Assembly (NCBI GenBank): GCA_025360865.1
Contig: JANYBG010000150.1
Span: 1 to 42,943 of the forward strand
Origin: Pseudomonadota bacterium
GTDB lineage: Bacteria; Pseudomonadota; Gammaproteobacteria; Steroidobacterales; Steroidobacteraceae
Direction: 5' to 3'
DNA: 42,943 nucleotides
The stretch's first letter is position 1. Each line of letters begins with the position of its first letter. A program made the position numbers and the translations under genes. This document shows, in pieces, positions 236-9,469 of the stretch. The notes under the pieces are model-generated. The model ran no database searches. It was not told the origin of the DNA and was given only the letters and a program-made list of their open reading frames with translations.

Positions 236-1402
236 TCAGCCGGCCAGACTCAGGTCACCCTTGACCGCGGAGCGGAAGATGCGCGCGTACGTCGCCGCGT
301 CCGTCGGTAGCGGGTTGCCGCCCGCGGACGGATCGAGCGAGGCCTCGTGCCCGATGATTTCCGGGTTGGTCAGCGGCACGCCTATCTCGGCGAGCGAGTG
401 GGGAATCTCGAGGCTCGCGCGGAACTCCAGCACCCAGTCGAAGACAGCCGTGAAGGGGTCGCCCTTCAGATCCAGCGTCCGCGCCACGAGCGCCAGCCGC
501 GACTCGATGGCGGGGCGATTGTGGACGATGACGTACGGCAGGATCACCGCGTTGGTGAGGCCGTGGTGCGTGTTGAAGTAAGCCCCCACCGGGTGGGCGA
601 TCGCGTGCACGCCGCCCAGTCCCTTCTGGAAGGCGGTGGCTCCCATGCTCGCCGCGGCCAGCATGCGCGAGCGCGCCTCGATGTCCGTGCCGTTCGCGCA
701 CGCGCGCGGCAGGTACGTCTGGATCAGGCGCATGCCCTCGAGCGCGATGCCATCAGCCAGCGGATGGAAGCCCGGAGCGCAGAAGGCCTCGAAGCAGTGC
801 ACGAAGGCATCCAGGCCGGTGGCCGCAGTGATCTTGGCCGGCAGGCCGACGGTTAGTTCAGGGTCGCTGATCACGACTCCGGGCATCATCTGCGGATGAA
901 AGATGATCTTCTTCTGATGTGTGGCCTCATTGATCACGACCCCCGCGCGCCCGACCTCGGAACCGGTGCCCGCCGTGGTCGGCACCGCGACGATGGGCGC
1001 GATGCCTGTCTTGTCGGCACGCGTCCACCAGTCACCGACGTCCTCGAAATCCCACAGCGGACGGGTCTGGCCAGACATGAACGCGATGACCTTGCCGGCA
1101 TCCAGCGCGGAACCGCCACCGAAGGCGATGACCCCGTCGTGCCCCCCCTTGCGATAGACCGCGAGGCCTTCCTCGATGTTGGCGGCGACCGGATTGCCCC
1201 TAACATTCGCGAACACGGCGGTGCCGGGAACCAGCGCGCAGGCCGCCGTCACCATCGGCGCGTCACGCAGGCCCTCATCGGTGACCAGCAGGGGCCTGGT
1301 GATTCCCAGGCGGGCACACGCGGCCGGCAGCTCGGCGATGCGTCCCGGGCCTGCCCAGACGGTGGTGGGGTAGTTCCAGTTGCCCTTGAGTGGTTCGCTC
1401 AC
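236..1402 (-). CDS. Iron-containing alcohol dehydrogenase (group III Fe-ADH)
   Basis: 388 residues. The start is a GTG at 1402-1400 overlapping the upstream aldehyde dehydrogenase stop as GTGA; the longer open frame back to 1600 lies inside that gene and is rejected. The dinucleotide-binding motif GGGSALDAGK sits near residue 95, PTTAGTGSE near 140, and the four metal ligands read as Asp198, His202, His266 and His280, with the spacing seen in FucO-type enzymes. Family members interconvert alcohols and aldehydes with NAD(P). As last gene of the run phnW-phnA-phnY-transporter-ligase-ALDH-ADH it may oxidise a gamma-glutamylated amino alcohol to the aldehyde used by the next enzyme. Alternatively it may link 2-hydroxyethylphosphonate to phosphonoacetaldehyde, a reaction known for Fe-ADHs in phosphonate biosynthesis. 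The substrate is inferred only. Confidence 0.9.
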   Translation of the reverse strand: MSEPLKGNWNYPTTVWAGPGRIAELPAACARLGITRPLLVTDEGLRDAPMVTAACALVPGTAVFANVRGNPVAANIEEGLAVYRKGGHDGVIAFGGGSALDAGKVIAFMSGQTRPLWDFEDVGDWWTRADKTGIAPIVAVPTTAGTGSEVGRAGVVINEATHQKKIIFHPQMMPGVVISDPELTVGLPAKITAATGLDAFVHCFEAFCAPGFHPLADGIALEGMRLIQTYLPRACANGTDIEARSRMLAAASMGATAFQKGLGGVHAIAHPVGAYFNTHHGLTNAVILPYVIVHNRPAIESRLALVARTLDLKGDPFTAVFDWVLEFRASLEIPHSLAEIGVPLTNPEIIGHEASLDPSAGGNPLPTDAATYARIFRSAVKGDLSLAG

Positions 1403-2784
1403 GTGGTTACCCGCAGGTGGAATGATTTTGGCCGGGTTAGGTGCTCGTAGCCCACGACCGAAAGGGTGCAGCCACGCCCGGAGTCCTTTATCCCGACCCA
1501 GGCGAGCGCCGGATCGAGGTAGTCGCAGCGGTTCATGAACCAGGTGCCGGTGTGCACCTGGGAACCCAGTGTTTCCGCGGCGCGCGCATCTGCTGTCCAC
1601 ACCGCGGCGGTCAGCCCGAACGCGCTGTCGTTCATCTGCGCGACGGCCTCGGCATCCGAGTTGACCTTCATGACGCCCGCCACGGGTCCGAAGATCTCCT
1701 CGCGCATCACCGTGGATCCGGCGGGCGCATCCAGCAACAGCTGGGGGGCGAGATAAGGTGTCCCGGCCTGGCTGAGCGCGAAGGCACGCTCGTCGATCAC
1801 CGGGCGGGCGCCGGCGGCGATCGCGGCCTTCACCTGCGCGCGCACGCTCTCCGCGGCCGCGGCGCGGACCAGGGGGCCTAGGGTCGTTTCCGGGTCGCGC
1901 GGGTCGGCCAGCCGGTATTGCTGGATCAGTTCAACGCAGCCGCGGGTGAAGCGATCGTGGATGCTCTCATGAACGTAGATGCGCTGTAGCCCGCAACAGG
2001 ACTGCCCGGAGTTGAAGTACGCGCCATCGACGATGTTCTCGACCGCGTGCGCCACATCGGCGTCGTGGCGGACGTATACAGGATCGCAACCGCCAAGTTC
2101 GAGGCCCACGCCGATGAAGCGCGCGGCGGCCGCCCGCTGCACGGCATGCCCTCCCGCGACCGAACCGGTGAAGGCGACGAAGTCCACTCGCGGATCGCCA
2201 ATCACGCGGGCGGTGTCCTCGTGGCGCAGGTGCAGCACTTGGAATACGCCCGCCGGCAGGCCGGCCGCGTTGAAGCAGTCCGCGAACACCTCGGCGCATA
2301 AGGGTGTCTGGGCTGAATGCTTGAGGATCACCGCGTTACCCGCCATCAGCGCCGGGACCACGCTGTTGACGGCGATCAGGTACGGGTAGTTCCACGCGGC
2401 GACCGTGAACACCACCCCCAGTGGCTCCCGGCGGATGAAGCGGCGGAAGCCCTCCTTGTGGCCTGGATCGACGTCGGCCAGCGCGCCGGCGGCGGCGGCG
2501 ATCATGTACCGCGCCCGCTCAAGCGTGCCGCGTACCTCACTCGGAGCGAAGCGAATCGGCCGTCCGATCTGCCAAGTGAGGCCGGTGGCGATGTCCACGC
2601 CGCGGCGCTCGAACTCGACGCAGAACCGCTGCATGATCGCGGCGCGCTCGGCGAGGGGGACCTCGCGCCAGCGCGCCTGCGCCGCGGGGGCCGCGGCGAG
2701 TGCCTGCTCGATCCGCGCCGGCGTCGCCGCGCTGCGCTCGGCGTAAACGCTGCCGTCAACGGGGGAGATGGACTTGATACTCAT
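1399..2784 (-). CDS. NAD(P)-dependent aldehyde dehydrogenase
   Basis: 461 residues from ATG 2784-2782, which overlaps the stop of the upstream glutamine-synthetase-like gene as ATGA; the open frame to 2850 is rejected because it runs into that gene. The general-base Glu229 is in LELGGCDP and the catalytic Cys263 in NSGQSCCG, with the oxyanion Asn in AAWNYPY and the EEIFGP motif near the C-terminus, so all core ALDH residues are present. The downstream neighbour is an iron alcohol dehydrogenase joined by a GTGA overlap. An alcohol dehydrogenase plus ALDH pair behind a glutamate-amine ligase suggests oxidation of a gamma-glutamyl amino aldehyde to the acid. It is a different subfamily from the phosphonoacetaldehyde dehydrogenase at 5605-7053, so the operon encodes two distinct ALDHs. 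Confidence 0.92.
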   Translation of the reverse strand: MSIKSISPVDGSVYAERSAATPARIEQALAAAPAAQARWREVPLAERAAIMQRFCVEFERRGVDIATGLTWQIGRPIRFAPSEVRGTLERARYMIAAAAGALADVDPGHKEGFRRFIRREPLGVVFTVAAWNYPYLIAVNSVVPALMAGNAVILKHSAQTPLCAEVFADCFNAAGLPAGVFQVLHLRHEDTARVIGDPRVDFVAFTGSVAGGHAVQRAAAARFIGVGLELGGCDPVYVRHDADVAHAVENIVDGAYFNSGQSCCGLQRIYVHESIHDRFTRGCVELIQQYRLADPRDPETTLGPLVRAAAAESVRAQVKAAIAAGARPVIDERAFALSQAGTPYLAPQLLLDAPAGSTVMREEIFGPVAGVMKVNSDAEAVAQMNDSAFGLTAAVWTADARAAETLGSQVHTGTWFMNRCDYLDPALAWVGIKDSGRGCTLSVVGYEHLTRPKSFHLRVTT

Positions 2785-8278: not shown

Positions 8279-8365
8279 TCCTTCGATCCGCGGCGCGGCC
8301 GCGGCGGCCGCCTGCCTGAGTAGACACCACCGCGGTCGGACTTGTCATCCGCCGCCCCCTGAGGC

Positions 8366-9469
8366 TCAGGTGCTCGCGCGTAGCTGCGCGAGCACGGCGC
8401 CGACCGCCTCGAGGACGCCGGCCATGCCTTTCTCGCCCAGCTGCCCCATGCAGCCTACCCGGAAGGTATCTGCGGCGGTGAGCTTGCCCGGGTAAAGGAT
8501 GTAGCCGCGCGCCTTGACCGCGTCGTAGAAACTGTTGAACTGGTAGCGCGGGTGCTCGGGTGCGTGGAAGGTGACGATGATCGGCGCCTGGATCGCCGCG
8601 GGGAGGAAGCACCGCAGTCCGAGACGCCGCATGCCCTCCAGCAGCGTGCGGCAGTTGGCCGCGTAGCGAGCGCCACGCGCGGCGACGCCGCCTTCCTCCA
8701 GGAATTGCGCGATCGCCGCATCGAAGGCGGCGACGACATGCGTCGGCGGCGTGTACCGCCACTGCGCCGTCTTGCGCATGTAGACCCACTGGTCGTGAAG
8801 GTCCAGGGCGAGTGAATGGCAGTTACCTTCGCAGCGCTCGAGGGCCGCACGGCGGGCAATCACGAAGCTCATGCCCGGCGGCCCCTCCAAGCACTTGCCG
8901 GAGGCGGCGATCAGCGCGTCAAAGGGGGTCGTGCGCGCGTCAATCTCCAGCGCGCCAAAAGAACTCATCGCATCGATGATCAGTCCTCGGCCGTGGCGCG
9001 CCGCCGCCTGGGCGATCGCCTCGAGGGGGTTCAGGATCCCGGTGCTGGTCTCGCAATGAACCAGCGCGACATGGGTGATGGACGAATCCGCCGCGAGTGC
9101 CTGGTCGATATCCGTCGCGCTGACCGGCTGGTCCTCGGCGTAGTCGATCGTTGTGACCCGGCGGCCGAGCACGCGGCAGATACGCGTGATGCGCTGGCAG
9201 TAGGCGCCGTTTTGCGGGACCAGGACATGGCCGGCGCGCGGCACCAGCGTGCCAATCGCCGCTTCCACCCCGAAGGTGCCACTGCCCTGGAGCGGCACGC
9301 ACTCATGGGTGGCGGCGCCGTGGATGATATCGAGCAGGCGCGCGCGAACGCGGGCCGTGATGTTATTGAAGTCGACATCCCACGAGCCCCAGTCGCGCAG
9401 CATGCTCTGCTTGGTACGCAGGGATATGGTGAGTGGACCCGGGGTCAGCAGATACGGCTCGCTCGTCAT
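8366..9469 (-). CDS. phnW: 2-aminoethylphosphonate-pyruvate transaminase PhnW
   Basis: 367 residues, the usual PhnW length. This fold-type I PLP enzyme transfers the amino group of 2-aminoethylphosphonate to pyruvate, giving phosphonoacetaldehyde and alanine. It opens with YLLTPGPLT, the family start motif; [10 protein letters not shown] near residue 62 binds the cofactor phosphate, DAMSSFGA near 166 contains the PLP-contacting Asp, and Lys192 in [12 protein letters not shown] is the Schiff-base lysine. It is the first gene of the minus-strand run, preceded by a weak GAGCAGG ribosome site and a 196-base gap to the divergent gene at 9666, which presumably holds its promoter. No LysR-type regulator or C-P lyase genes lie alongside. 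Assignment is strong because phnA and phnY follow. Confidence 0.95.

What the first reader, a model, noticed from the sequence alone, without database searches (positions are those of the whole stretch)
236..9469. Phosphonate operon fused to a gamma-glutamyl ligase / ALDH / Fe-ADH module
Seven minus-strand genes run phnW-phnA-phnY-OPA transporter-GS-like ligase-ALDH-Fe-ADH with overlaps of 11 and 13 bases, ATGA and GTGA; the only larger gaps are 87 and 142 bases. Known AEP pathways end at PhnA. A ligase that has lost the ammonium loop plus an alcohol/aldehyde dehydrogenase pair resembles gamma-glutamyl amino-alcohol degradation (IpuC-type logic). Hypotheses: (a) the trio degrades ethanolamine or another head-group amine taken up together with phosphonolipid AEP; (b) the substrate is itself a hydroxylated aminophosphonate; (c) the Fe-ADH feeds 2-hydroxyethylphosphonate into phosphonoacetaldehyde. 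No PbfA-type lyase or cytoplasmic gamma-glutamyl hydrolase is seen.
Basis: partly seen in the sequence, partly recalled or inferred. Interest (0 to 1): 0.78.

Follow-up and report, generated by a model that had tools for sequence, protein, structure and literature searches.

The report
Aminoethylphosphonate plus ethanolamine breakdown operon
A bacterium carries, in one stretch of DNA, genes to break down aminoethylphosphonate next to genes that very probably break down its look-alike ethanolamine, the latter by a known route that starts with an unstudied type of ligase.

Summary
In detail: seven minus-strand genes, phnW-phnA-phnY-OPA transporter-GS-like ligase-ALDH-Fe-ADH, with the stated overlaps. 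They form two modules. (1) phnWAY plus an OPA-type permease resembles the known aminoethylphosphonate (AEP) route. (2) GS-ALDH-Fe-ADH is a cassette that relatives mostly carry without phn genes. Three results point to ethanolamine by gamma-glutamylation: 25 of 80 related loci hold an ethanolamine-type transporter; the order matches the published Phaeobacter ethanolamine cluster; and the ALDH and Fe-ADH interleave in trees with those of clusters built round an ethanolamine-binding-protein homologue. The ligase is not the type usual in those clusters (about 31% identity, separate clade) but takes its place in two of them, so it is probably a second class of gamma-glutamylethanolamide synthetase. 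The two modules are neighbours in several relatives in three arrangements, in one with phnAYW between the trio and the hydrolase, but apart in the closest relative. Hypothesis (a) is supported, (b) and (c) are not. No enzyme activity was tested. New variant of a known kind.

The parts
8366..9469 (-). phnW, 2-aminoethylphosphonate--pyruvate transaminase
   Evidence: TIGR02326 494.3 bits, cut-off 400.8
7043..8278 (-). phnA, phosphonoacetate hydrolase
   Evidence: TIGR02335 586.5 bits, cut-off 407.55
5605..7053 (-). phnY, phosphonoacetaldehyde dehydrogenase
   Evidence: TIGR03250 848.7 bits, cut-off 635.65
4292..5617 (-). OPA-type (GlpT/PgtP-like) MFS transporter, candidate AepP-like AEP permease
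   Evidence: Best NCBIfam matches TIGR00881 154.6 and GlpT TIGR00712 101.6 bits, both below cut-off; follows phnWAY where the trio is not next to it (G110, G122); AepP is GlpT-related and co-localised with PhnWAY or PhnWX (PMC8316502 passages)
4149..4291 (.). 143-base gap between the two modules
   Evidence: No minus-strand terminator-like site; one promoter-like site 4272-4244, the only one in 1-10300, where shuffles give a mean of 1.1
2781..4148 (-). glutamine-synthetase-like gamma-glutamyl ligase, proposed gamma-glutamylethanolamide synthetase of a second class
   Evidence: PF00120 329.7 bits but below the GlnA, type III GS and gamma-glutamylputrescine synthetase cut-offs; ammonium-site motifs changed; own clade
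1399..2784 (-). aldehyde dehydrogenase, proposed to act on gamma-glutamylaminoacetaldehyde
   Evidence: PF00171; interleaves with ALDHs of EtoX-linked clusters
236..1402 (-). iron-containing alcohol dehydrogenase, proposed gamma-glutamylethanolamide dehydrogenase
   Evidence: PF00465/PF25137; interleaves with Fe-ADHs of EtoX-linked clusters
2..232 (+). 3' part of a HisN/inositol-monophosphatase-family gene cut by the contig end; a matching 5' part is at the end of contig C65, next to the hydrolase and glycerophosphodiesterase
   Evidence: TIGR02067 positions 181-251 here and 3-173 on C65; C65 holds GDPD, GATase and HisN 5' part in that order; the family passes its cut-off in relative L039 (279.5 vs 275.15)

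Best explanation
Two catabolic modules for sister C2 amines lie in one co-directional run. Module 1: the OPA permease (AepP-like) imports AEP; PhnW makes phosphonoacetaldehyde, PhnY phosphonoacetate, PhnA acetate and phosphate. Module 2: the GS-like ligase joins glutamate to ethanolamine, the Fe-ADH oxidises gamma-glutamylethanolamide to the aldehyde, the ALDH makes gamma-glutamylglycine, and a class I GATase hydrolase encoded across the contig break releases glycine and glutamate. A glycerophosphodiesterase beside that hydrolase could free ethanolamine from glycerophosphoethanolamine. Shown: gene families, gene order, linkage in relatives, and ALDH/Fe-ADH families shared with clusters round an ethanolamine-binding-protein homologue. 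Inferred: substrates, reaction order, co-transcription, adjacency of C65, and the roles of the diesterase and the phosphatase.
For: PhnW/Y/A pass equivalog cut-offs. Of the 80 best of 555 homologous stretches, 63 have at least 3.5 kb downstream and 51 of these keep GS, ALDH, Fe-ADH in order; 25 of 80 hold an ethanolamine-type transporter (8 EtoX-like, 11 PERM5, 6 PERM10, no locus with two kinds) and 39 of 80 a candidate hydrolase. PERM10, tested on L069, passes the ethanolamine permease cut-off TIGR00908 (578.6 vs 381.75). The EtoX-like protein of L088 matches 4UAB (E 9.6e-172), which binds ethanolamine (PMC12410723 passages). Reverse test: 26 of 398 phylum genomes have EtoX; 19 of those 26 loci have GS-ALDH-FeADH in order, 2 with the window-type GS, 17 with another type. 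ALDH and Fe-ADH of both cluster kinds interleave. Phaeobacter MED193 has EtoX, ethanolamine gamma-glutamylase, aldehyde dehydrogenase and gamma-glutamylethanolamide dehydrogenase in that order, raised on phosphorylethanolamine (PMC10132767 passages). Own genome: GATase and GDPD on C65; no EutB. Coupling: 29 of 34 genomes with PhnA have the window-type GS, against 40 of the other 362; in G223 phnAYW lies between the trio and a GATase gene, in G333 phn converges on trio-GATase-Na/Pi transporter.
Against: No activity data. The ligase is not of the ETAGA/5dm3-like type (about 31% identity). No dedicated ethanolamine transporter: no EtoX in G000 at E 1e-90, no TIGR00908 over cut-off there, none in the 6 phn-bearing loci. 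PERM5, tested on L057, is below its cut-off (353.1 vs 381.75). G122, closest by ligase (92%), has the modules apart. Of 8 other phylum-sample genomes with the window-type ligase, 6 have the whole trio, L255 lacks ALDH, L256 lacks Fe-ADH, and none shows PhnA or PhnW nearby. Of the 63 loci, 3 lack Fe-ADH, 4 lack ALDH and 5 lack both, L088 among the five. In 3 plasmid regions viewed of 10 hits, GS-ALDH is present with no Fe-ADH annotated next to it. The co-occurrence test ignores kinship: 33 of the 34 PhnA genomes are in one family.
Confidence: 0.72

Rival explanations
1. The trio handles a different amino alcohol (1-amino-2-propanol, 3-aminopropanol, serinol or similar) by the same gamma-glutamyl logic.
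For: The window-type ligase is a separate clade from the usual EtoX-linked ligase; 55 of 80 loci show no recognised ethanolamine transporter, though only 50 hold 5 kb or more on both sides.
Against: The ethanolamine transporters that were recognised sit beside the trio in 25 of 80 loci; the ligase takes the place of the other type in EtoX clusters L229 and L230.
Confidence: 0.17
2. The trio acts on an aminophosphonate (AEP, 1-hydroxy-AEP) or on 2-hydroxyethylphosphonate, as in the reader's (b) and (c).
For: Adjacency to phn genes in the window and several relatives.
Against: No phn gene found in the DNA held for 74 of 80 trio loci; the Fe-ADH is far below the phosphonate Fe-ADH model (136.9 vs 423.7); the trio stays where phnX stands in for phnAY (L180, L184).
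Confidence: 0.06
3. The neighbourhood is a chance or clade-inherited juxtaposition with no shared substrate source or regulation.
For: The modules are apart in G122; PhnA and GS lie on different contigs in 21 of the 29 genomes holding both, G223 counted among them.
Against: Three arrangements: phn-OPA upstream of the trio; phnAYW between trio and GATase (G223, by a 99-base contig overlap); convergent in G333. If 29 genomes of 3.7 Mb were independent, three or more links within 10 kb would have P about 5e-4; they are not independent.
Confidence: 0.25

Closest known systems
Phaeobacter MED193 ethanolamine cluster EtoVWX-ETAGA-GAADDH-GETADH (PMC10132767; passages seen)
   Same: Order GS-like, ALDH, alcohol dehydrogenase; in 17 clusters of this layout the ALDH and Fe-ADH are 48-59% and 53-61% identical to the window's
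   Different: Ligase of another clade (about 31%); no TRAP transporter in the operon; hydrolase candidate is a class I GATase, while 16 of those 17 clusters carry a formylglutamate-amidohydrolase-like gene; phnWAY-OPA upstream. The MED193 proteins themselves were not at hand
Streptomyces GlnA4 ethanolamine pathway (PMC6529630; passages seen)
   Same: gamma-glutamylethanolamide synthetase with a dehydrogenase, an aldehyde dehydrogenase and a hydrolase gene
   Different: Short-chain dehydrogenase named instead of an Fe-ADH; GlnA4 sequence not compared here
AepP with phnWAY (Pseudomonas putida BIRD-1; PMC8316502 passages seen)
   Same: GlpT-related permease co-localised with PhnWAY or PhnWX
   Different: Sequence not compared; the paper's text has 0 occurrences of 'ethanolamine'
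PuuA/IpuC gamma-glutamyl amine pathways
   Same: GS-like ligase plus oxidation steps (IpuC logic recalled)
   Different: P0001 reaches 191 of the 650 bits set for gamma-glutamylputrescine synthetase; IpuC not compared

Membership tests
AEP hydrolytic route PhnW-PhnY-PhnA | All three enzymes at equivalog level | tested here: met
Ethanolamine gamma-glutamylation pathway | GS-like ligase without the ammonium-site Glu | tested here: met
   PGFWAP against PGFEAP in own GlnA
Ethanolamine gamma-glutamylation pathway | ALDH and Fe-ADH of the same families, downstream in order | tested here: met
Ethanolamine gamma-glutamylation pathway | gamma-glutamylglycine hydrolase | tested here: inconclusive
   Class I GATase candidate on C65; activity unknown
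Ethanolamine gamma-glutamylation pathway | Ethanolamine transporter in the same genome | tested here: not met
   No EtoX at E 1e-90, no TIGR00908 over cut-off; a polyamine-type ABC system on C65 is a candidate only
Ethanolamine gamma-glutamylation pathway | Ligase activity with ethanolamine | not testable with these tools
   -
ETAGA/5dm3-like ligase | Falls in the clade of the usual EtoX-adjacent ligases | tested here: not met
   Two separate clades, 100/99 and 100/100 support, about 31% identity; L236 GS matches 5dm3 at 5.6e-237
Type I glutamine synthetase GlnA | TIGR00653 cut-off | tested here: not met
   219.1 vs 429.15; a GS with the DGSS and PGFEAP motifs is at C234
AepP permease | OPA family, next to phnWAY | tested here: inconclusive
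   Adjacent; best matches are OPA-type models but below their cut-offs
AepP permease | AEP transport and AepP binding residues | not tested
   AepP sequence not at hand
PsrA phosphonate Fe-ADH | TIGR03405 cut-off | tested here: not met
   136.9 vs 423.7

The most novel reading that the evidence does not exclude
This is a lipid head-group salvage island that treats the C-P (AEP) and C-O (ethanolamine) versions of one C2 amine as co-substrates, and in some relatives also the C-S version (taurine, by Xsc), freed from glycerophospho- and phosphonolipids by a glycerophosphodiesterase; its ligase is a second, unrecognised class of gamma-glutamylethanolamide synthetase that displaced the known one while ALDH and Fe-ADH stayed.
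Probability: 0.4. Interest if true: 0.6.

Novelty: new variant of a known kind. Interest (0 to 1): 0.47.

Why it matters
If true, one locus would couple phosphonate and phospholipid head-group recycling, yielding phosphate, acetate, glycine and nitrogen. It would also give a testable function to an unassigned glutamine-synthetase-like subfamily, found in 9 of 398 sampled genomes of the phylum (own genome included), whose plasmid-borne members are annotated simply as 'glutamine synthetase'.

Tried and rejected
Rejected: glutamine synthesis by the ligase (below cut-off, GS with intact motifs elsewhere in the genome). Ethanolamine ammonia-lyase as the genome's route (no EutB). Phosphonate-specific Fe-ADH. 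A taurine branch in this genome (no Xsc over cut-off). My first thought that the ligase is the published ETAGA type was wrong: it is only about 31% identical to the type usually next to EtoX. The label 'ABC18' printed was my mistake; that cluster is HisN-like.

Led nowhere: promoter/terminator scan (no excess over shuffles); a paper search for phosphonate, ethanolamine, taurine, phnW and glutamylation together (0 papers). The simple gene caller missed or mis-stranded genes, so counts use tblastn and key layouts were redone.
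Full report
Observation. PhnW, PhnY and PhnA pass NCBIfam equivalog cut-offs; GS-like, ALDH, Fe-ADH and OPA pass none of those shown, although their Pfam domains are clear. At the ammonium site the ligase has PGFWAP where the genome's GlnA has PGFEAP, and lacks DGSS.

Two modules. The 80 loci kept are the best of 555 stretches that encode a relative of the ligase. All 80 were examined, but only 50 hold 5 kb or more on both sides of the ligase. 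Phn genes (at least 50% identity for PhnA/PhnW, 60% for PhnY) were found in 6 of 80: L036, L039 and L041 with phnW, phnA and phnY; L037, L038 and L093 with phnW. OPA (at least 50%) is in the first five of these and in none of the rest. Of 63 loci with at least 3.5 kb downstream, 51 keep GS-ALDH-FeADH in order, 3 have ALDH only, 4 Fe-ADH only, 5 neither. Conversely, G110 has phnWAY-OPA and no window-type ligase at E 1e-100. So OPA goes with phn, and the trio is a cassette of its own. AepP, an AEP permease shown by mutants, is GlpT-related and co-localised with PhnWAY or PhnWX (PMC8316502, passages).

Why ethanolamine. 25 of the 80 loci hold an ethanolamine-type transporter: 8 EtoX-like, 11 PERM5, 6 PERM10, no locus with two kinds. 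The families were tested on one member each: PERM10 (L069) is above the TIGR00908 cut-off, PERM5 (L057) below it, and the EtoX-like protein of L088 matches 4UAB at 9.6e-172, the ethanolamine-bound Csal_0678 (PMC12410723, passages). L088 itself has neither ALDH nor Fe-ADH downstream. In the reverse test, 26 of 398 phylum genomes have EtoX. Of those 26 loci, 19 have GS-ALDH-FeADH in order: 17 with a ligase 31-36% identical to the window's, 2 (L229, L230) with a window-type ligase at 71 and 66%. The other 7 have no GS nearby; one of them has an Fe-ADH. This layout matches the Phaeobacter MED193 cluster, whose proteins rise on phosphorylethanolamine against the phosphate control (PMC10132767, passages).

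Ligase displacement. The two ligase types are separate clades (100/99 and 100/100), and the common type is the 5dm3 family (L236 GS, 5.6e-237). Their ALDHs and Fe-ADHs are not separated: the label needs 3 changes in each tree and no bootstrap tree gives 1. Well-supported branches force at least 2 changes for ALDH but only 1 for Fe-ADH, so a single origin is not excluded there. The simplest reading is one pathway with two exchangeable ligases. The hydrolase differs too: formylglutamate-amidohydrolase-like in 16 of 17 common-type clusters (one of these also has a GATase-like gene), GATase-like in both window-type EtoX clusters. Limits: of 8 other phylum-sample genomes with the window-type ligase, 6 have the trio, one lacks ALDH, one lacks Fe-ADH, and none shows PhnA or PhnW in the stretch taken. 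In three plasmid regions viewed of ten hits, GS-ALDH has no Fe-ADH annotated beside it; one has an annotated AEP transaminase about 7 kb upstream and one a class I amidotransferase downstream.

The missing steps. In G000, contig C65 carries a polyamine-type ABC transporter (binding protein 81% identical to that of L182, whose PotD score is below cut-off), a GDPD (PF03009), a class I GATase (PF00117) and the 5' part of a HisN-like gene. The window's bases 2-232 are the 3' part: TIGR02067 positions 3-173 on C65, 181-251 in the window. C65 and the window do not overlap, and the end of C65 departs from the gene, so adjacency is inferred; the order Fe-ADH, HisN, GATase, GDPD is seen in L166, L145, L154, L158 and L182. 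Another HisN-like gene is at C169. The genome has no EutB, no EtoX at E 1e-90 and no TIGR00908 over cut-off.

Linkage. In a sample of 396 genomes of the order, 34 have PhnA over cut-off and 69 a window-type ligase; 29 have both, against 40 ligase carriers among the other 362. 33 of the 34 are in one family, so this is no clean test. Within 10 kb on one contig: G000, G237, G283, G327, G338, G380 and G333; in G338 the ligase reading is split into two pieces. G223 is added by an exact 99-base overlap of two contig ends. In G190 the distance is 28.6 kb; in the other 20 the two are on different contigs, some of them short (for example 6,565 bases in G287 and 3,105 in G295). G243 and G384 carry phnX-phnW-OPA-enolase-trio and have no PhnA match. 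G122, closest by ligase (92%), has phnWAY-OPA and trio-GATase on different contigs. The three arrangements: phn-OPA upstream of the trio; trio, permease, GntR, phnA-phnY-phnW, GATase in G223, so that phn lies between the trio and a hydrolase candidate; trio-GATase-Na/Pi transporter converging on phnY-phnA-GntR-phnW in G333.

Literature. The papers cited were seen as passages only. A 2023 review of phosphonate degradation has 0 occurrences of ethanolamine, taurine and glutamine synthetase (PMC10574752). Searches listed no paper whose title or abstract start describes a joint AEP-ethanolamine operon; they list only the top rows (20 of 273, 20 of 32, 10 of 69, none, 3 of 3, 5 of 5, 12 of 49), and the library holds open-licence PMC papers only.

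Verdict. A known AEP module beside a known kind of ethanolamine module with an unstudied ligase class: new variant of a known kind.

Noticed in passing
L037:8891-9997, also L036, L038, L040, L041: An enolase-superfamily gene (MR_MLE, tested on L037; the others by likeness) lies just before the ligase gene, after OPA where OPA is held; the window lacks it. Function unclear.
   Followed up: partly
L037:5440-6387; L180; L184: PhnX (TIGR01422 226.8 vs 220, tested on L037) stands upstream of phnW in place of phnA and phnY, with OPA and trio kept.
   Followed up: partly
L166:407-4848 (same stretch as in L039): A sulfoacetaldehyde acetyltransferase-type gene (Xsc, family tested on L037), a GABA-permease-like gene (tested on L160, below cut-off) and an acetate kinase-family gene (tested on L039) precede phnW: a likely taurine branch.
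   Followed up: partly
L222:12480-12620 (G355): ALDH lies next to OPA and the ligase gene is gone apart from what looks like its last codons; deletion or assembly fault.
   Followed up: no
L157:12051-13757, L173, L199: A Na/Pi-cotransporter-family gene (PF02690 with PhoU, tested on L157) recurs beside phn or the trio; possibly phosphate efflux.
   Followed up: no
window 10196-12558 +: PQQ-type dehydrogenase (PF01011) and a cytochrome c, divergent from phnW.
   Followed up: no
L172:7716-9128 and 6 other loci of its cluster: A putative aminophosphonate oxidoreductase (TIGR03329 747.5 vs 632.8, tested on L172) lies before phnA in phn clusters of relatives.
   Followed up: no
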